Shown piece after piece: positions 76 to 64,000 of a stretch of 64,000 nucleotides of DNA. Below the pieces are notes generated by a model. The model worked only from the letters and a program-made list of their open reading frames with translations. It made no database searches and was not told the DNA's origin. A program made the position numbers and the translations under genes. Positions within the stretch are counted from its first letter, which is position 1. Each line of letters opens with the position of its first letter. This DNA comes from Astropecten irregularis (lineage: Eukaryota; Echinodermata; Asteroidea; Paxillosida; Astropectinidae): NCBI GenBank assembly GCA_963971285.1, contig OZ020262.1, positions 2,482,082 through 2,546,081 on the forward strand, read 5' to 3'.

Positions 76-107
76 CTTTTCACAAACTTGGTCTAAAAAA
101 AAATTGA

Positions 108-510
108 AAGGTGAATAAAGAAAAATCGACAGGAGAAGGAAGCGAACTGGCGACCTCTTACCAACTGAGCTGTCCAGCCCTACGTTAGTGGTGTCCCTAA
201 AAGTAAATTATCTTTGTTCTCAGTGAGAGGAACCAACCTTTTAATTGTTAAACATGTTAAAACAAAATGATCCTTGGGATATAGCAGTATGTGCATGGTT
301 TCATGGCTTCTGACTGCCAAACGAACAAAGATAATTGACTATATGGATTATTAGGGACACCACTAATGTAGGGGTGGGTAGCTCACTTGGTAGAGCGTCT
401 GTACAGTATTGAGGTCTTCAGTTTGAATTCTGCTCCATTTAATTTTTCTTTGATCACCTTTCAATGACTTAAAAATCCAGCCAGTTTACCTTGTGGAATT
501 ATTTCATGAT
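108..510. repeat. tRNA-headed palindromic retroposon, head-to-head copy
   Basis: Two degenerate tRNA-like modules face away from each other: a minus-strand copy near 137-180 and a plus-strand copy near 374-440. Each is followed outwards by the family tail (AATTTTTCTTTG, TTCACTTTTCAATGACTT and, on the right, a TTATTTCA end). The centre carries the family body (GGTTTCATGGCTTCTGACTG). The module keeps an A-box-like segment and a poor B-box. It is the oldest-looking copy of a family also seen at 11505-12140, 20367-20666 and 33643-34090. No target-site duplication is clear here. Confidence 0.7.
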
Positions 511-700
511 TAAAAAAAATATTAAGTAGGTTTTGAAGCTTTGCATGGTGGAAGTCACGTAATAAGGAAAGGTTTGCGGAGGCACCATGTATAATCTCTT
601 TTAATGGATGTGGTTCTGAAAAGAACCGGTGAGAATTGTTCTCGACGTTCCGGCCAGTGTACTCTGGCCGTCCTCAGGAGGGTGTGTGTCGTGAAGCGAG
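511..700 (-). mobile_element. Penelope-like element terminal region
   Basis: This stretch matches 32610-32780 along about 160 bp: a GCATGGTGGA block, CACCATGTATAA, AATCTCTTTTA, CTGAAAAG with ACCGGTGAGA, then a short stem block and CCTCAGGAG. On the minus strand the block reads CTGAGGA, a stem of about 7 bp, then GAAC/GAAAC GTC. Penelope-like terminal regions are known to carry hammerhead-ribozyme-like motifs, and this has the look of such a core. It is probably the terminus of the Penelope-like element whose coding part lies at 2020-3838. Confidence 0.5.
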
Positions 701-8885: not shown

Positions 8886-9659
8886 AATTACCTTTAAAAC
8901 CAACCATTGAAAAGCGACAAAGAAAAATTGTACCATGGTTGTACCATCACTTTTCAATGACTTGAAATTCAGTCAGTTTCCCTTTTGGTTATTTCATGAT
9001 AGAAACAATCCAGAGTTTTTCGGAACTAGAGATAGATGCTATGTGTTGCGTCTGGCCAGATGAAAGGGGCTACCTGTACATTTTATAGATGTTGTGGCGC
9101 ATCCTGGAAGGGGGGGGGGGGGGGGTTGGAAGCATGATGGGTATAGACATGTGCAAATCCTATTATGCGTGGATATCTCAACAATAATGAAAATTCTAAA
9201 TAACTTCCTAGGGCCCTTGGGGTTTTTTGTACGTGTTGGAATTTGTGCTTAAAACAAACCTTTACATGGTGTTCTTGAGGTGAAGGATATGCAGGATGGT
9301 AAGAATGTGGATAAGATATCCCTCCCCGCCAGTGACCAATAAAAGACAATGACACCATGGACCATGTGTTGAGTGGCCTGACATAAGAGTAATGTTTATA
9401 TTTGGGAAAAGTCTGTTGACCTCCGAAGTATATACAGTATTTAAGATAATTATTTTTTTTTTATCAATGAGGTTCCAAACGTGAAGCTTTTGTGGAGGAG
9501 AACATGTATGGTCCAGCAGGAAGTATACTCCCCTCGCAATGGCGATTTCTTCATTGACATAATTATGTATGTCATCACTCACACGTGAAGCAAGTATGGG
9601 AGCAAGGGAACAACCTCTCGAGAGGAGTATAGGGGGAAGTGTCGTGGCAGTATTGGGAT
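8886..9659. other. no gene seen; tail-like fragment and poly-G
   Basis: A fragment of the tRNA-headed family tail (CACTTTTCAATGACTTGAAA, TTATTTCATGAT) lies at about 8949-9003. A G run lies at about 9108-9126. The rest is AT-rich and unrecognised. Confidence 0.5.
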
Positions 9660-11504: not shown

Positions 11505-12140
11505 AAACTTAATGAAAAGTGAACAAAGAAATATTTACTGGACCTGGATTCGACCCGGCGACCTCCTGAATACCGTACAGGCGCTCTACCAACTGACCCA
11601 TCCAGCCCTACGTTGGTGGTGACCCCAATAGTCAATTATCTTGGTTCATTTGGCAGCCAGAAGCAATGAAACCACGCACACACCACCATACCCCAAGGAT
11701 CATTTCACCGATACATGCAGCAATGCTGCAACCTGGGAACGGGGGATCACTCAAAGAGGATACGGCTCTTTTATTAATATAATTAATATAATCATCAAAT
11801 AACCACAAGGGAAACTGACTGAAAAGTGAACAAAGACAAATTGACTGGAGTGGGATTCGAACTCGCAACCTCCTGAATACCGTACAGGCGCTCTACCAAC
11901 AGAGCCATCCAGCCCTACGTTGGTGGTAACCCCAATAGTCAATTATCCACTCACCACACGTTTGCATGGCCGGTTGCAATATTTGTCTGAGGTTTAGCGC
12001 AAGTGCGCAGCGCTATTGATTATTGGGGTCACCACTAACGTAGGGCTGGATGGCTCAGTTGGTAGAGCACATGTACGATATTCAGGAGGTCGCCGGTTCA
12101 AATCCTGCTCCAATAAATTTTTCTTTGTTCACTTTTCAAC
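11505..12140. repeat. tRNA-headed retroposon, three-module compound copy
   Basis: Three tRNA-like modules occur: minus at about 11537-11611, minus at about 11843-11918 and plus at 12044-12115. The first two are head-to-tail, about 305 bp apart, with the family body between them. The second and third are head-to-head. The third is exactly 72 nt with A-box TGGCTCAGTTGG and B-box GGTTCAAATCC. The palindrome centre (AATAGTCAATTAT / ATTGATTATTGGGG) has been interrupted by a truncated AATAGC-family MITE (11946-12017), so the retroposon is older than that MITE. Confidence 0.8.
11946..12017. mobile_element. AATAGC-family MITE, truncated copy nested in retroposon
   Basis: CACTCACCACACGTTTGCAT, GGTTGCAATATTTGTCTGAG and GCGCAGCGCTATT match the right half of copy 2 at 7723-7867. 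The left half is missing. It splits the head-to-head junction of the tRNA-headed element. Confidence 0.75.
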
Positions 12141-20087: not shown

Positions 20088-20953
20088 GGGCCGATTTCAC
20101 TAATGCTTTGCGATCATCGCTGAAGCCCAAATCCATCGCTAAATGGAAAATCGATCAAAAAGTAGCGATTGATTTTAAAGATGGATTTCACTAAAACTTT
20201 GCGATGAATTTCTCATCGCAATGGGTCCACTTAGCGATGAATATCTTGCGATGACCATTTAGTGCCCGCAAAGCTATAATTTCATCGCAAAAAATAATGT
20301 CAAGGTGATAAGTCACGTCATTTTAACTTATATGTTCGTTGTTCTGTAACGTGTAAATAATGAATTCGTGAAATAACCACAAGGGAAACAGACTGAGTTT
20401 TTTTAAGTCATTGAAAAGTGAACAAAGAAAAATTGACAGGAGTGGGATTCGAACCGGCGACCTCCTGAATACCGTACAGGCGCTCTACCAACTGAGCCAT
20501 CCAGCCCTACGTTGGCGGTGACCCCAATAGTCAACTATCTTTGTTCGTTTGGCAGCCAGAAGCCATGAAACCACGCACACACCGCCACACCCCAGGGATC
20601 GTTTCAATGATACACCCCATCATCGAATCCCGCTAAAGTCAATTTTTCTTTGTTCACTTTTCAATGGTGTAAATAATGAATTAGATATATGTATTAACAT
20701 CTATTGTGCATAAACAATGCTCAGGCTTTACACGGAGAGCAGGTTTTCATGGATAAAAAAAGTTTTTGTTGCGTTTCGCTTAGTTGTCACGGACAGTATG
20801 GAGAAAGTGACATCCTCATGGTCCTCATTATTCCGATGACTTTAGTGAAACGTAAAATCAACGCCATCGCAAGTGCGATGGATTTGCAGTTAGCCATCGC
20901 ATCGCTAGCTCAATAGCGATGATCGCAAAACAAGACTTTAGTGAAATCGGCCC
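20088..20953. mobile_element. MITE inserted in the gypsy-like pol, with 3-bp target duplication
   Basis: The ends GGGCCGATTTCACTAA and TTAGTGAAATCGGCCC are perfect inverted repeats, flanked on both sides by CAG. Removing the insert joins QLR and SFLGLASYYRR of the RT-RNase H connection, so the insertion site is certain. The interior repeats AGCGATGA-type words and carries a nested tRNA-headed retroposon (20367-20666). A 3-bp duplication and a GGGCC end would fit a PIF/Harbinger-like or related family, although the target is not TWA. Confidence 0.88.
20367..20666. repeat. tRNA-headed retroposon, complete copy with 16-bp target duplication
   Basis: GTGTAAATAATGAATT occurs at 20351-20366 and again at 20667-20682, framing exactly 300 bp. 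The insert has a minus tRNA-like module (about 20437-20508) with its tail outward to the left, the family body, and a short plus-strand module remnant with tail (GTCAATTTTTCTTTG, TTCACTTTTCAATG) on the right. The two ends are thus inverted repeats of 29 bp. The long target duplication indicates target-primed reverse transcription, not a cut-and-paste transposase. Confidence 0.88.
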
Positions 20954-32441: not shown

Positions 32442-32809
32442 AAGAATTATGAACATACGTGACAAACTTTTCCGCCCAAGAACTAACTGAGGCAGCGTCC
32501 TACCTGGCAAACAAAGTTTTCTTACGTGGTAGGCCCATAATAGAGGAAGGAAGGCCTGTATTGCGTTACATGTAGGCCTAAAACTTAACTTAGAAATCTC
32601 CATTTACACATGTAAGTAAGGTTTGAAGTTTTTGCATGGTGGAGACACTAGAATGAGTAAGGCTTGCGGTGACACCATGTATAAAAATCTCTTTTATGAA
32701 GATGTGTGGTCCTGAAAAGGACCGGTGAGAGTGGATTCTTGACGTTTCAACTAGTGTGCTCTAATCATCCTCAGGAGAGAAAGAATTATGAACACATGTG
32801 ACAAACATG
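32442..32809 (-). mobile_element. solo Penelope-like terminus with flanking repeats
   Basis: Positions 32610-32780 match the block at 511-700. The minus strand reads CTGAGGA, a stem (ATTAG...CTAGT), GAAACGTC and later CTCTCACCGGTCC. AAGAATTATGAACA and GTGACAAAC occur on both sides (32442-32468 and 32783-32809, about 24 of 27 positions identical), as if this were a long target duplication around a short insert. Confidence 0.55.
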
Positions 32810-33629: not shown

Positions 33630-33642
33630 AATTTGAGATATA

Positions 33643-34090
33643 GGAGGTCGGAGTCAGGAGTCCGGAGGTCGCCGGTTCGAATCCCGCTCCAGTAAATTTT
33701 TCTTTGTTCACTTTTCAACGACTTAAAAATACTCAGTCAGTTTCCCTTGAGGTTATTTCACGAATATATTAATTAAAAAGCCGTATCCTCTTTGAGTGAT
33801 CCCCCATGTGCCATTCCCAGGTTGCAGCATTGTTGCGTGTATCATTGAAATGATCCCTGGGGTGTGGCAGTGTGTGCGTGGTTTCATGGCTTCTGACTGC
33901 CAAACGAACAAAGATAGTTGACTATTGGGGTCACCTCCAACGTAGGGCTGGATGGCTCAGTTTGTAGAGCGCCTGTACGGTATTCAGGAGGTCGCCGGGT
34001 CGAATCCAGCTCCAGTCAATTTTTCTTTGTTCACTTTTCAACGACTTAAAAATACTCAGTCAGTTTCCCTTGTGGTTATTTCACGAATAT
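33643..34090 (+). repeat. tRNA-headed retroposon, head-to-tail dimer with 13-bp target duplication
   Basis: AATTTGAGATATA occurs at 33630-33642 and 34091-34103. Between them is a 5-prime-truncated tRNA-like module with its tail (33643 to about 33771), then the family body, then a full tRNA-like module at 33946-34017 with tail to 34090 (TTATTTCACGAATAT). The second module is exactly 72 nt and folds on paper as a cloverleaf: 7-bp acceptor with one G-U, 4-bp D stem, 5-bp anticodon stem with one mismatch, 5-bp T stem with one mismatch. Its A-box is TGGCTCAGTTTG and its B-box is GGGTCGAATCC. The anticodon position reads GGT, but position 33 is C, so it is not expected to work as a tRNA. Confidence 0.9.
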
Positions 34091-34103
34091 AATTTGAGAT
34101 ATA

Positions 34104-45145: not shown

Positions 45146-45447
45146 GCTGTAAAGAATGTGCAGTGTATTGTACTTAGGGTTGGGCTAGCGTATAAATTTG
45201 GGCGTCAGTTCGCCGGAGGCATGCCCACTTCCCTTCGCCGCTGAGATGTGTGTCCGCCCCAAGATGATGCCAGCTCGAGCTCGCCTTTAGCCCACGACTA
45301 TACCACCTGGTATAGGTCCGCCACTTCGATGACTGTGAGCCGTCCCAAGGCTCTGACCGAGAACTCGGGCTTGCCTATATAGCCAAAACTCCACTGTGAC
45401 GTCAAGCTTGCTTTTAGCCCATGCTCCCCCGAGAACTCAGGCTCGCC
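45146..45447. other. GC-richer flank of the minisatellite
   Basis: Sequence with GAGCTCGCC and CTTTAGCCC words; nothing coding recognised. Confidence 0.45.
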
Positions 45448-46187
45448 CTAGATGGCTTGGGTCAGACCGACTCAGTACTCTTCCTAGATGGCTTGGGTCA
45501 GACCGACCCAGTGCTCTTCCTAGATGGCTTGGGTCAGACCGACTCAGTGCTCTTCCTAGATGGCTTGGACCAGACCGACTCAGTGCTCTTCCTAGATGGC
45601 TTGGACCAGACCGACTCAGTGCTCTTCCTAGATGGCTTGGGTCAGACCGACTCAGTGCTCTTCCTAGATGGCTTGGACCAGACCGACTCAGTGCTCTTCC
45701 TGGCTTGGGTCAGACCAACTCAGTGCTCTTCCTAGATGGCTTGGGTCAGACCGACTCAGTGCTCTTCCTAGACGGCTTGGGTCTGACCGACTCAGTGCTC
45801 TTCCTAGACGGCTTGGGTCTGACCGACTCAGTGCTCTTCCTAGATGGCTTGGGTCAGACCGACCCAGTGCTCTTCCTAGATGGCTTGGGTCAGACCGACT
45901 CAGTGCTCTTCCTAGATGGCTTGGGTCAGACCGACCCAGTGCTCGCCCTAGATGGCTTGGGTCAGACCGACTCAGTGCTCTTCCTAGATGGCTTGGGTCA
46001 GACCGACTCAGTGCTCTTCCTAGATAGCTTGGGTCAGACCGACTCAGTGCTCTTCCTAGATGGCTTGGACCAGACCGACTCAGTGCTCTTCCTAGATGGC
46101 TTGGGTCAGACCGACTCAGTGCTCTTCCTAGATGGCTTGGGTCAGACCGACCCAGTGCTCGCCCTAGATGGCTTGGGTCAGACCAGT
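45448..46187. repeat. 36-bp minisatellite, about 20 copies
   Basis: The unit begins CTAGATGGCTTGGGTCAGAC and continues CGACTCAGTGCTCTTC. Because 36 is a multiple of three, frames stay open on both strands, giving spurious proteins of 12-residue repeats (DGLGQTDSVLFL on the plus strand). Variants GGACCAGAC, GACGGCTTGGGTCTGAC and GACCCAGTGCTCGCC alternate. One unit near 45700 lacks 6 bp. Confidence 0.95.
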
Positions 46188-50928: not shown

Positions 50929-53185
50929 GGGAGCTCATCCAAAAGGTTACACCGCGGTGTCACCGCAATCACCGCGGTTTGGGCGGGTCCTTAACAACCA
51001 GCCCACTTTCGACAGTCCTTGCTTATTTAGCATATTAAAAGAACTGACTAACAAAACTCCCTATTGTTATTTTAACTACCCACTGAACGCGGTGGCCGCG
51101 GCGCAACCGCAGACGCCACAAACTCATTTCTGTCTGCCGCGGCCACCGCGTCTGATCTTGGAGACAAAAAACCAAACTATTACTTCCTCCCTGAAAATAC
51201 ATTTTTGGGGGACTTGGCTTGGACCATTTTCTCTGGGACCTGCATTATTTTGTCTCTACCAAACTATTATTTAATGCCCCCGGCTAAAAATACGTGTTTT
51301 TTTTTTCGGGGACTTGGCCGACCATTTTCTCTGCGATCTGCATTATTTTGTCTCTACCAAACTATTATTACCCTCGCTGAAAATACGTTTTTTAAGGACT
51401 TGGCCGACCATTTTCTCTGGGACCTGCATTATTTTGTCTCTACCAAACTATTATTTCCCCGGGGGAAAATGTGTTTTTTAGGGACTTGGCCGACCATTTT
51501 CTCTGGGACCTGCATTATTTTGTCTCTACCAAACTATTATTACCCCAGCTGAAAATACGTTTTTTTAAAGACTTGGCCGACCATTTTCTGTGGGACCTGC
51601 ATTATTTTGTCTCTACCAAACTATTATTACCCCCGGGGGAAAATACGTCTTTTAGGGACTTGGCCGACCATTTTCTCTGGGACCTGCATTATTTTGTCTC
51701 TACCAAACTATTATTACCCCCGGGGGAAAATACGTTTTTTAGGGACTTGGCCGACCATTTTCTCTGGGACCTGCATTATTTTGTCTCTACCAAACTATTA
51801 TTACCCCCGGGAGAAAATACGTCTTTTAGGGACTTGGCCGACCATTTTCTCTGGGACCTGCATTATTTTGTCTCTACCAAACTATTATTACCCCCGGGGG
51901 GAAAATACGTCTTTTAGGGACTTGGCCGACCATTTTCTCTGGGACCTGCATTATTTTGTCTCTACCAAACTATTATTACCCCCGCTGAAAATACGTTTTT
52001 TAAGGACTTGGCCGACCATTTTCTCTGGGACCTGCATTATTTTGTCTCTACCAAACTATTATTACCCCCGCTGAAAATACGTTTTTTAAGGACTTGGCCG
52101 ACCATTTTCTCTGGGACCTGCATTATTTGTCTCTACCAAACTATTATTACCCCCGGGGGAAAATACGTCTTTTAGGGACTTGGCCGACCATTTTCTTTGG
52201 GACCTGCATTATTTTGTCTCTACCAAACTATTATTACCCCCGGGGGAAAATACGTCTTTTAGGGACTTGGCCGACCATTTTCTCTGGGACCTGCATTATT
52301 TTGTCTCTACCAAACTATTATTACCCCCGGGGAAAAATACGTCTTTAAGGGACTTGGCCGACCTTTTTCTCTGGGACCTGCATTATTATGTCTCTACCAA
52401 ACTATTATTACCCCCGGGGGAAAATACGTCTTTTAGGGACTTGGCCAACCGTTTTCTCTGGGACCTGCATTATTTTGTCTCTACCAAACTATTATTACCC
52501 CCGGGGGAAAATACGTCTTTTAGGGACTTGGCCGACCATTTTCTCTGGGACCTGCATTATTTTGTCTCTACCAAACTATTATTACCCCCGCTGAAAATAC
52601 GTTTTTTAAGGACTTGGCCGACCATTTTCTCTGGGACCTGCATTATTTGTCTCTACCAAACTATTATTACCCCCGGGGGGAAATACGTCTTTTAGGGACT
52701 TGGCCAACCATTTTCTCTGGGACCTGCATTATTATGTCTCTACCAAACTATTATTACCCCCGGGGGAAAATACGTCTTTTAGGGACTTGGCCAACAATTT
52801 TCTCTGGGACCTGCATTATTTTGTCTCTACCAAACTATTATTACCCCCGGGGAAAATACGTTTTTAAGGGACTTGGCCGACCATTTTATCTGGGACCTGC
52901 ATTATTTTGTCTCTACCAAACTATTATTTCCCTGGCTGAATACAGGATACAGTTTCGGCCAGCGGGAAATTTCATTGATGAACCGCGACCACCGCGACCA
53001 CTAGTGCATAATTCATAAGTATCAACATAACAATAGCACTCGTCTTGAGGCTCTGCCTCATTAACTTGTCTCCGCATGGGTGATTTTTTGTGCAAAGGGC
53101 CGCGTTCCCCGCGGTCCTTGGCAACAAGCCTAAACCGCGGTGGCCGCGTGCGGTCAGACCGCGGCGACCTTTTGGATGAGCTCCC
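50929..53185. mobile_element. Harbinger-like non-autonomous element carrying a tandem array
   Basis: GGGAGCTCATCCAAAAGGT and ACCTTTTGGATGAGCTCCC are perfect 19-bp inverted ends, each flanked by TAA (50926-50928, 53186-53188). Just inside both ends are clusters of CCGCGGT-type words (ACACCGCGGTGTCACCG, GCGGTGGCCGCGG / GCCGCGGCCACCGCG, AAACCGCGGTGGCCGCG), possible transposase sites. The 2,257-bp element has no transposase. Most of it is an 87-bp tandem array. Confidence 0.9.
51165..52938 (+). repeat. 87-bp minisatellite, about 20 copies
   Basis: The unit contains GGACTTGGCCGACCATTTTC, TCTGGGACCTGCATTATTTT, GTCTCTACCAAACTATTATT and ACCCCCGGGGGAAAATACGT. Units differ by one or two bases and by the CCCCGGGGG versus CCCCGCTG variant; edge units are the most diverged. 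Since 87 is 29 codons, long repetitive frames appear on the plus strand. They are not genes. Confidence 0.95.
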
Positions 53186-57884: not shown

Positions 57885-58217
57885 GATATAACTTCAACCA
57901 CAGCCTTCAAAAGCTCCATTAAGCCTATATTACTACAACTTTAAAATAATACATAGCACTTTTAGCAGATTAGATCCCGATCCACTCTCGGCAACTTCCA
58001 GTATAGTCCCTAGAGGACCTTTCGGAAGTGTTTTCTACAAGGTACAAGGTACAAGGTACAAGGTACGACTTGACTTGGGTACGAGTTGACTTGGGTACGA
58101 CTTGACTTGGGTACGAGTTAACTTGGGTACGAGATGACTTGGGTACGAGTTAACTTGGGTACGAGATGACCCAAAATCCCCTAGTACTAACATTATGGCC
58201 TACTCATAGCTGCAGTA

Positions 58218-58340
58218 ACTGAAGCTGCAGTAACTGTAGCCCAATATTACTCCTGACGTTGTTGTCGTAGCCTATAATATACTAGGCCTACGACAACAAC
58301 GTCAGGAGTTATATTGGGCTACAGTTACTGCAGCTAGCCT
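58218..58340. repeat. large palindrome, arms about 55 bp
   Basis: AGCTGCAGTAACTGTAGCCC, AATATTACTCCTGACGTTGT and TGTCGTAGCC are inverted after a short AT-rich loop (ACTAGG at the centre). The copy at 62306-62440 is the same apart from two extra bases (ATAT) in the loop. Confidence 0.9.
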
Positions 58341-61784: not shown

Positions 61785-64000
61785 AAACTCAGAGGCTGAC
61801 CACTCTTCATAAGATATTCAACCACGAACTTGACATTAACGCTGACCTGTTTGTTAAGCAGAAACCCAGCAGATCTAGAAGAGGCAACAACAAACAACTT
61901 AAAGTTCTACATTCAACATCAACTCCATATTCTCAATCCTTCTTCCCTGAAACCACCCAAATTTGGAATAAATTACCCCAGTCAACTGTCGATATAACTT
62001 CAACCACAGCCTTCAAAAGCTCCATTAAGCCTATATTACTACAACTTTAAAATAATACATAGCAGATTAGATCCCGATCCACTCTCGGCAACTTCCAGTA
62101 TAGTCCCTAGAGGACCTTTCGGAAGTGTTTTCTACAAGGTACAAGGTACAAGGTACAAGGTACGACTTGACTTGGGTACGAGTTGACTTGGGTACGACTT
62201 GACTTGGGTACGAGTTAACTTGGGTACGAGATGACTTGGGTACGAGTTAACTTGGGTACGAGATGACCCAAAATCCCCTAGTACTAATATTATGGCCTAC
62301 TCATAGCTGCAGTAACTGAAGCTGCAGTAACTGTAGCCCAATATTACTCCTGACGTTGTTGTCGTAGCCTATATAATATACTAGGCCTACGACAACAACG
62401 TCAGGAGTTATATTGGGCTACAGTTACTGCAGCTAGCCTACTCACTGCACTGCTACGGGAGTAGGCTACCTACCGGCCTACGGGAAAAACGCAAAGAAAC
62501 AATGCGTGCCACGTACCGTTCAAAGAATTTTTAGCCTCCCGGAGTCACTTTCAGCATAGGCATAGATCAACTTGCTTCAGAAATTCTGTTTAATCCAGCA
62601 CAGCAGGTCAGGTCAAACTCTCTGAGTCACTCAATTATGTGTACACATCGGCACACCCATATCTGTTCAGTCTGTACGATGTCGCCGTACATGTAATGTA
62701 CATACATGTACGAGTACCACTACCACTACCAGTACAGTATAATGCAGAAGAAGATCTTTGATGTAGATACGTAGACTTTACACGAGTCGTTATTTTGAGG
62801 TAAATAGGAGCATCTCCATTAGGCCATAAAAAAAAAATTGTTGTATTGGCGTAACGGAGGTTTGGAAAATAGGGTAGGGCGGGCGGATTTTTTTTTTTTT
62901 ATTTAATTTTTCCTGGGGTATTAAATGCTTTTTCCCCTGTATATCACAGTATTTGACGTGTCAAATAAAGACAAGAAATGACATAACAACTTTAACCAGT
63001 CTGGTTTCCATCTTTTACTCCTTTTAAGCTTTTAATCTGCATACAAATTTGCGATTTTTTTATTTTATTTAATTTTTTTCCCGATTTTTATTTATTTATT
63101 TTTAATTTTTTTTTTTTTTGGTTTAAAATGTTTACGGTCGGGGCATATTTTTGGGTCGGGCGGGTTACGCAAAAACAACAATTGTTTTTTTATGGCCTTA
63201 TTAGCCATAACAAAGTTGGCTCGTGCTTCATTGAAAAGCAAGACGTATACACGTACACACACAACTGGCGTAGCGAGTGACGGGGCGCAGTGGGCGCGAA
63301 TAAGACCGCTCAATTACAGACTGGATTTCAAGTCTAATTAAATTGTCGGGGGGGATGGGGGGGGGGGGGTGGAGGGGGGATTGGGTGAGGGTGGGGGGGG
63401 GTGTTGTTCTACGCCCCTGGAAACGAAAATATTGTTGATCTTTTAAAAGATCAAAAATAAAAGAGAAAAGAAATACTGTGGCTGTTTTTCACTGTTTTCT
63501 CAAAAAGTGGGCATGCACACCGTATGGGACTGAAATATTCACAGATGTCTGTTACTGTATTTGTCTTGATTTAATGATATGTTTGCCCATGAATCTGTAT
63601 TTGATAAAAACAATTACTTTTAAACAAAATAATAATTGTTAATTTTCCTGCGCCCCACTAATAGTGCGTCTTTTTTTGCAAATACTCGCGATTTTTTGCC
63701 TTGGGATTCGGGAAGTGTGTGTGAATGCAACGAATGGTCCGCAACATTTTTTTGTGTAGGCCTTATAGCTATAAGTAAAGTATATCCCATCGTGCAAGAC
63801 GTGCACTATCCGAACTTCCTGTTAGCACAGTGTTGAATGTGTAAACTGTACAACACATCAACTCAATCACGCTTTTTCAGTGTGTGTGAACATGGTAACT
63901 TTGTGTGAAAAAAAAAAACCTCGGACACCTACCTTTCATCGTCTCCACAACTAGTGGATCTATAGCATCCCTTGCAGCCCCACTGCCTCTGCTTGGAATG
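61785..64000. repeat. second copy of 56689-60121
   Basis: From AAACTCAGAGGCTGACC at the gap edge to the window end, the sequence repeats 56689-60121 nearly base for base: LINE 3-prime end, ACAAGGT repeats, right minisatellite array, palindrome, T-rich block, R1 fragment and the exon-like sequence. It lacks the insertions at 56900-57884 and 59310-59521 and differs by scattered substitutions and short indels (for example CTTTTAG missing after CATAGCA near 62062). Confidence 0.95.
63933..64000 (-). CDS. BEN-domain-like exon, second copy, cut by window end
   Basis: The same donor (GTAGGT) and 68 nt of the same exon as at 60054-60166, identical in the visible part. The acceptor side lies beyond the window. 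Confidence 0.4.

What the first reader, a model, noticed from the sequence alone, without database searches (positions are those of the whole stretch)
33643..34090. tRNA-headed retroposon occurs as head-to-tail dimers and head-to-head palindromes
Four loci hold the same building block: body, 72-nt tRNA-like module and tail. It is arranged head-to-tail (33643-34090; first two modules at 11505-11920) or head-to-head (108-510; 11843-12115; 20367-20666). Two loci have long target duplications (13 bp and 16 bp), so each compound unit was inserted as one piece by a retroposition mechanism. Ordinary SINEs carry the tRNA head at the 5-prime end and are monomers. Here the tRNA sits inside a circularly permuted unit of about 305-324 bp, as though a circular or concatemeric RNA, or template switching at reverse transcription, produced the inserted copy.
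Basis: partly seen in the sequence, partly recalled or inferred. Interest (0 to 1): 0.75.

Follow-up and report, generated by a model that had tools for sequence, protein, structure and literature searches.

The report
tRNA-bearing repeat inserted by Penelope-like machinery
A 324-base repeat that carries a transfer-RNA sequence is present in thousands of copies in this animal's genome, and the shape of the copies examined suggests that they were pasted in by the enzyme of a Penelope-like transposon rather than by the usual helper of such short elements.

Summary
The window carries copies of a 324-nt unit ("U") with an internal tRNA-Thr, head-to-tail or head-to-head. The tRNA core occurs 7,758 times genome-wide (up to 3 mismatches; control 0). 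The host is probably an echinoderm (inferred).

In 78 insertions reverse transcription began mostly at two sites: B (about U97) and A (about U144). Of 39 head-to-head loci, 23 have both outer ends in these windows; all 23 (22 without a segmental copy) pair A with B. A target duplication of 9 bp or more encloses 22 of the 23 (null 1.7%). 5' ends are spread over the unit and 29 of 121 arms exceed one unit.

This matches the published signature of Penelope-like elements (PLEs): both strands primed, two internal start sites. A resident PLE shows the same architecture (three insertions read), and one PLE piece sits at the same position of a host repeat as a U copy.

So U is best read as a PLE-mobilised, retrozyme-like element with a tRNA where the PLE has a hammerhead-like motif. 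The U and PLE tails do not match significantly, so the helper is not identified. A circular template is possible, not shown.

The parts
33643..34094 (+). U copy, single orientation, U39 through one full unit to site A (U149); two partial units head-to-tail; first 18 nt do not align to U
33631..33642 (.). left copy of the target duplication ATTTGAGATATA
34092..34103 (.). right copy of the target duplication (overlaps the end of the tiled copy by 3 nt)
20354..20615 (-). left arm of a head-to-head compound, outer end at site A (U154)
20623..20666 (+). right arm of the same compound, outer end at site B (U98)
20351..20366 (.). left copy of the 16-bp target duplication GTGTAAATAATGAATT (overlaps the tiled arm)
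20667..20682 (.). right copy of the 16-bp target duplication
20434..20506 (-). tRNA-Thr(GGT) module of the compound
   Evidence: 42.2 bits
103..219 (-). left arm of an old head-to-head compound, outer end at site B (U97)
265..515 (+). right arm, outer end at site A (U147); 9-bp low-complexity duplication around the compound
8905..8930 (-). left arm (27 nt) of a miniature head-to-head compound, outer end at site B
8947..8999 (+). right arm (56 nt), outer end at site A; no duplication seen
11513..11947 (-). U copy with two tRNA modules head-to-tail, outer end at site B (U95)
11842..11914 (-). tRNA-Thr(GGT) module
   Evidence: 45.7 bits
12016..12151 (+). U copy inverted to the previous one across 68 bp of another repeat, outer end at site B (U107)
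12044..12116 (+). tRNA module
   Evidence: 32.5 bits

Best explanation
U is a short non-coding element mobilised by the machinery of a Penelope-like retrotransposon (PLE). Shown here: a 324-nt unit with a tRNA-Thr; two preferred reverse-transcription start sites, B (about U97, 24 nt after the tRNA) and A (about U144); AT-rich targets with 11-16 bp duplications; one A end and one B end at the outer edges of every head-to-head copy whose two ends could be classed; no fixed 5' end; arms up to 1.5 kb. Inferred: the PLE endonuclease makes staggered cuts in AT-rich DNA; the two 3'-OH ends prime on U RNA, one at A and one at B, as reported in vitro for the Anolis PLE; the two cDNAs are extended for variable lengths and their far ends are joined, giving a head-to-head compound in one step. 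If only one cDNA is kept the product is a single-orientation copy. The template RNA spans more than one unit, either a circle or a transcript of a tandem array. The tRNA probably supplies an internal Pol III promoter, and since it sits where the resident PLE has a hammerhead-like motif it may also serve as a processing site.
For: 23 of 23 head-to-head loci with both outer ends classed are A-B (22 after removing the segmental copy L043), 0 A-A, 0 B-B; 10 of the 23 come from L031-L080, looked at after the windows were set by eye on the first 30 loci. Duplications of 9 bp or more in 22 of 23 A-B compounds against a null of 1.7%. Duplications are 81% AT against 57% in the window. Resident PLE family P1: RVT_1 29.3 bits (just under the cut-off 29.6) and GIY-YIG 27.2 bits; three P1 head-to-head insertions with B' on one side, A' on the other and 12, 12 and 13 bp duplications, read by eye (L084, L093, L094). 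L009 (U) and L094 (P1) share the same position in two copies of a host repeat. Published PLE protein cuts and extends both strands and starts at two adjacent internal sites (PMC11167929); head-to-head inverted pLTR arrangements are the most frequent in rotifer PLEs (PMC3846280, passages).
Against: The tails of U and P1 are not significantly alike (p 0.134), so the helper is not identified. 16 of 39 head-to-head loci have at least one outer end outside A/B, and only 12 of 38 single-orientation loci show a duplication of 9 bp or more. Several duplications are low-complexity. The 11.5-12.15 kb locus may be a B-B compound. U's A-B distance (about 45 nt) and P1's (about 60 nt) exceed the published 30-40 nt tail, and duplications exceed the 8-10 bp reported in the rotifer passages. 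No LINE survey of the genome was made.
Confidence: 0.75

Rival explanations
1. Within the PLE reading: the template is a true circular RNA, as proposed for retrozymes, rather than a linear transcript of a tandem array.
For: 29 of 121 arms exceed one unit and 5' ends show no preferred place. Units within some loci are identical (0/324 differences in L067, L071 and the right-hand array of L027). Metazoan retrozymes of 150-450 bp are expressed as circles (PMC7229834).
Against: Homogeneous tandem loci could supply the same RNA. No ribozyme was recognised in U, though Rfam also missed the PLE's hammerhead-like motif. A mild excess of 5' ends at the tRNA start (10 against 4.5, post hoc) hints at some linear transcripts.
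Confidence: 0.35
2. An ordinary tRNA SINE moved by a LINE; the head-to-head copies are twin-priming products as in L1.
For: tRNA with a recognisable promoter region, target-primed insertion with duplications, 5' truncation and inversion are all known for LINE/SINE insertions (recalled).
Against: The second start site is not variable but falls at B in 23 of 23 compounds with both ends classed; the tRNA is not at the 5' end of most copies; arms run past a full unit.
Confidence: 0.1
3. DNA-level origin: a satellite or SINE-derived tandem repeat spread by circular DNA, recombination or nested secondary insertions.
For: Long arrays exist (at least four to seven units in L016, L029/L030); SINE-derived satellites are described (PMC10702118, abstract).
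Against: Whole compounds lie within one duplication and outer ends fall at two fixed sites; an uninterrupted host site exists for L009.
Confidence: 0.05

Closest known systems
Penelope-like elements (Penelope/Poseidon type; PAc of Anolis, PMC11167929; rotifer Penelope, PMC3846280)
   Same: Two adjacent internal start sites with a tail between them; both strands primed; AT-rich target; tandem and head-to-head inverted copies; duplications
   Different: U has no room for an RT/endonuclease gene and carries a tRNA; A-B distance about 45 nt against 30-40 nt; duplications 11-16 bp against 8-10 bp in the passages seen
Metazoan non-LTR retrozymes (PMC7229834)
   Same: Non-coding unit of 150-450 bp, monomers to long tandems, duplications longer than 4 bp, PLEs proposed as movers
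   Different: No hammerhead recognised in U and a tRNA instead; circles not shown here; in the text searched the words inverted and head-to-head do not occur
tRNA-derived SINEs
   Same: tRNA-derived module, non-coding, high copy number, target-primed retroposition
   Different: tRNA internal to a circularly permuted unit, 5' ends not at the tRNA, PLE-type rather than LINE-type ends
Helenus (TRIM with a tRNA in its LTR; PMC10886601, abstract)
   Same: tRNA-like promoter in a non-autonomous element moved by something other than a LINE
   Different: Helenus has LTRs, a primer-binding site, a polypurine tract and 4-5 bp duplications

Membership tests
PLE-mobilised (insertion signature of PLEs) | two adjacent preferred start sites of reverse transcription | tested here: met
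   ends cluster at U91-109 and U142-158
PLE-mobilised (insertion signature of PLEs) | both target strands primed, head-to-head copy within one duplication | tested here: met
   22 of 23 A-B compounds with a duplication of 9 bp or more, null 1.7%
PLE-mobilised (insertion signature of PLEs) | AT-rich target | tested here: met
   27 duplications of 11 bp or more are 81% AT; window 57% AT
PLE-mobilised (insertion signature of PLEs) | tail sequence shared with a resident PLE | tested here: inconclusive
   not significant against P1 (p 0.134); other PLE families of the genome not examined
Penelope-like element (as a member) | ORF with RT and GIY-YIG domains | tested here: not met
   the unit is 324 nt with a 73-nt tRNA; a 600-aa ORF cannot fit
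Metazoan retrozyme | non-coding tandem unit of 150-450 bp | tested here: met
   324-nt unit, up to at least four tandem units
Metazoan retrozyme | type I hammerhead ribozyme | tested here: inconclusive
   Rfam finds only tRNA in U at E up to 5, but also misses the hammerhead-like motif of P1
Metazoan retrozyme | expressed as circular RNA | not testable with these tools
   no RNA data
tRNA-derived SINE | tRNA-derived module | tested here: met
   52.8 bits to the Rfam tRNA model
tRNA-derived SINE | tRNA at the 5' end of the copies | tested here: not met
   5' ends of 121 arms spread over the unit (chi2 13.0, 11 df); 10 lie at the tRNA start (4.5 expected)
tRNA-derived SINE | 3' tail shared with a LINE | not tested
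   LINEs of this genome were not surveyed
L1-type twin priming | second priming site variable along the RNA | tested here: not met
   second site is B in 23 of 23 compounds with both ends classed; 13 further compounds have one end elsewhere and 3 have neither end in a window

The most novel reading that the evidence does not exclude
A new class of PLE-dependent SINE in which a tRNA has taken the place of the hammerhead ribozyme: Pol III transcribes it from the tRNA, tRNA-processing and ligating enzymes make monomer circles from multi-unit RNA, and the PLE enzyme copies those circles by priming both target strands at two fixed sites.
Probability: 0.25. Interest if true: 0.82.

Novelty: new variant of a known kind. 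Interest (0 to 1): 0.58.

Why it matters
SINEs are textbook passengers of LINEs (recalled). A tRNA-carrying element with the insertion fingerprint of a Penelope-like enzyme, in thousands of copies, would mean that PLEs have SINE-like passengers too. It would also be a large natural record of the two-strand, two-site priming so far shown biochemically for one PLE, and would make the open question of what moves retrozymes directly testable.

Tried and rejected
Separate secondary insertions as the origin of compounds: rejected for the A-B loci with duplications, because one duplication surrounds both arms.

Sequence homology between U's tail and that of PLE P1: not significant (p 0.134). A stem enclosing the tRNA folds with z -2.14 (4 of 200 shuffles as good); only a remark. 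The whole unit folds no better than shuffles (z -1.03, 16 of 100 as good). Rfam found no ribozyme in U but missed the PLE motif too, so it is not used as proof. A claim of constant unit length within but not between loci was dropped, since 323 is simply the mode (34 of 45 spacings). Possible enrichment of U inside PLE 3' ends (L004, L085, L086) was noticed, not tested.

First statistics were redone: one search counted nothing because of a type error; searches removed duplicates by sequence prefix and so wrongly dropped L009 and L022. One search uses genome coordinates and collapses L040 and L079. L043 and L078 (segmental copies seen) and the L053 2482-2823 micro-array were dropped before (75 loci); they are still in the counts. 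The loci are best BLAST hits or exact matches to the tRNA core, so they lean to young copies with a tRNA; 44 of the 100 places listed were not fetched by place. Sharing of variants between opposite arms leans on a few divergent loci (in one search, L053, L069 and the window's 103-515 give 64 of 120), so it may partly reflect old subfamilies.

Paper searches showed no PLE-mobilised tRNA element in their listings and abstracts; Repbase and SINEbase could not be searched.

Full report
What was checked. The window lies at G000:C27:2482082-2546081 of a 475.7-Mb genome in 168 contigs. The 16.3-kb contig C168 carries COX1 with TGA read as Trp; its five AAA codons fall where I expect Asn and ATA where I expect Ile (expected residues recalled), which points to the echinoderm mitochondrial code. 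The host is therefore probably an echinoderm (inference).

The unit. A tandem array on C8 gives a 324-nt unit, U. It holds a tRNA-Thr(GGT) at U1-73 (52.8 bits; anticodon), then 24 nt, site B, about 45 nt, site A, and about 180 nt more. The tRNA core is present 3,881 + 3,877 times with up to 3 mismatches (reversed-pattern control 0), the tail U115-144 7,474 times (control 0) and U206-235 1,593 times (control 0). The profile is highest next to the two start sites, as 5' truncation would give, although unequal conservation of the probes also affects it.

Loci. I tiled 30 best BLAST loci (40 of 2,068 candidates scored), 30 exact-core loci (of 100 places listed), 20 loci fetched by place, two loci that turned up inside PLE copies (L085, L086) and the window. 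This gave 80 non-overlapping insertions, 78 after collapsing two segmental copies: 39 head-to-head, 38 single orientation, 1 tail-to-tail. By exact marks alone, 100 clusters on C1:1-26.39 Mb include 16 with two or more units head-to-tail, 17 with both strands and 69 with neither; these are lower bounds for the compound forms.

The A/B rule. Ends that look like starts of reverse transcription cluster at U91-109 (B) and U142-158 (A). With duplications of 11 bp or more as guides (27 loci), A ends at ...TTATTTCACGAA and B at ...TTCACTTTTCAA, mostly within a few nt. Among the 39 head-to-head loci, 23 have both outer ends in the windows and all 23 are A-B; 13 have one end in a window and 3 have none. 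The windows were set after seeing the first 30 loci; the later loci L031-L080 give 10 such compounds (9 without the segmental copy L043), all A-B. Single-orientation loci end at A (18), B (16) or elsewhere (4).

One-piece insertion. Duplications of 9 bp or more enclose 22 of 23 A-B compounds and 12 of 38 single loci; mismatched pairs of ends reach 9 bp in 1.7% and 12 bp in 0.1%, against 17 of 23 and 6 of 38 at 12 bp. Some are low-complexity (L011, L012, L066, window 103-515). The count misses the duplication at 33643-34090, which lies 18 nt outside the tiled start. Tandem arrays are included: L067 (three units plus an inverted arm) lies in a 14-bp duplication and L050 (3.2 units plus an inverted arm) in a 13-bp one.

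Template. 121 arms have median 188 nt; 29 exceed 324 nt; the longest is 1,507 nt. Their 5' ends do not depart from an even spread (chi2 13.0, 11 df), with a mild post hoc excess at the tRNA start (10 against 4.5). Non-consensus states recur between same-strand copies of a locus in 228 of 631 comparisons (63.7 expected; 25 of 28 loci) and between opposite arms in 138 of 538 (25.3 expected; 15 of 26 loci). For states rarer than 5% elsewhere the figures are 56 of 381 (4.5 expected; 13 of 25 loci) and 64 of 423 (5.6 expected; 7 of 23 loci). A few divergent loci carry much of the opposite-arm signal, so subfamily structure may contribute. The result fits one circular RNA, or one transcript of a homogeneous array.

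The likely mover. A GIY-YIG search of the genome listed 60 matches (150 of 158 candidates scored). 8 of the 12 loci fetched belong to one young family, P1. Its ORF hits RVT_1 (29.3 bits, cut-off 29.6) and GIY-YIG (27.2 bits, cut-off 22.6). P1 copies end at B' (...CTTTAAGCA; for example L089, L090, L092) or A' (...TTTATTACTTGTATT; L088, L091). Three head-to-head P1 insertions have B' on one side, A' on the other and duplications of 12, 12 and 13 bp, read by eye (L084, L093, L094). A hammerhead-like stretch (recalled motif; not scored by Rfam) ends about 22 nt before B', much as U's tRNA ends 24 nt before B. L009 (U, 879 bp, A-B) and L094 (P1) sit at the same position of two copies of a host repeat; 40 of 40 scored matches to the joined L009 flanks run through the site uninterrupted (498 candidates). 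Two other U copies in the same repeat family (L049, L076) lie at other positions. In L054 a U copy and a P1 piece lie within several bp of the same position in two copies of a local repeat.

Literature. The Anolis PLE protein cuts and extends both strands and starts at two adjacent internal sites that bound the tail (PMC11167929, parts 1-2 of 4 read). Rotifer PLE copies are bounded by inverted pLTRs, one optionally tailed; head-to-head is called the most frequently observed inverted arrangement, and self-priming is proposed there (PMC3846280, passages). Metazoan retrozymes are tandem units of 150-450 bp with hammerheads, expressed as circles, with PLEs proposed as movers (PMC7229834, two sections and passages; PMC7761336, passages). 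U matches the first two in the way it inserts and the third in format, and differs by carrying a tRNA.

Results against. The U and P1 tails do not match significantly (p 0.134). 16 of 39 head-to-head loci have an end outside A/B. Most single-orientation loci show no clear duplication. The 11.5-12.15 kb locus may be B-B around a 68-bp foreign piece. The sample leans to young copies. Circularity is unproven and LINEs were not surveyed.

Verdict. U is best explained as a PLE-mobilised, tRNA-bearing, retrozyme-like element.

Noticed in passing
window 587-632 (-) and 32683-32728 (-): Two histone 3' UTR stem-loops (Rfam RF00032, 34.2 and 37.4 bits).
   Followed up: no
window 45435-46184 and 51193-52932: Tandem arrays of a 36-bp unit (21 copies) and an 87-bp unit (19.9 copies).
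   Followed up: no
window 58036-58240 and 62133-62337: The same three short tandem repeats recur at an offset of 4,097 bp, suggesting a direct duplication.
   Followed up: no
L037 1847-2496; L033 1562-1800: Tandem arrays of about 60 bp made of the PLE's hammerhead-like module.
   Followed up: partly
L054 2206-2722: The P1 3' region occurs as two 220-bp head-to-tail copies ending at A', i.e. a P1-derived tandem of retrozyme format.
   Followed up: partly
window 11948-12015; also next to U in L042, L048, L072: A short repeat lies between or beside pieces of U at several loci.
   Followed up: partly
L039 1300-1600: A PLE hammerhead-like stretch runs directly into an inverted U arm at GAAAC, as in a chimeric insertion; no duplication seen.
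   Followed up: no
L053 2482-2823: Micro-array of alternately inverted pieces (about 30 nt) of the tRNA module.
   Followed up: no
L008, L027-L030, L058-L060: Runs of N (200 bases where both sides are seen) fall inside U arrays or palindromes, as if these arrays broke the assembly.
   Followed up: no
G000:C131:32162-33484: A second COX1 match without TGA codons (552-aa open frame) on a small contig, possibly a bacterial contaminant or symbiont.
   Followed up: no
G000:C86:764-9831: The host repeat around L009 recurs four times about 2,970 bp apart, a possible long-period array.
   Followed up: no
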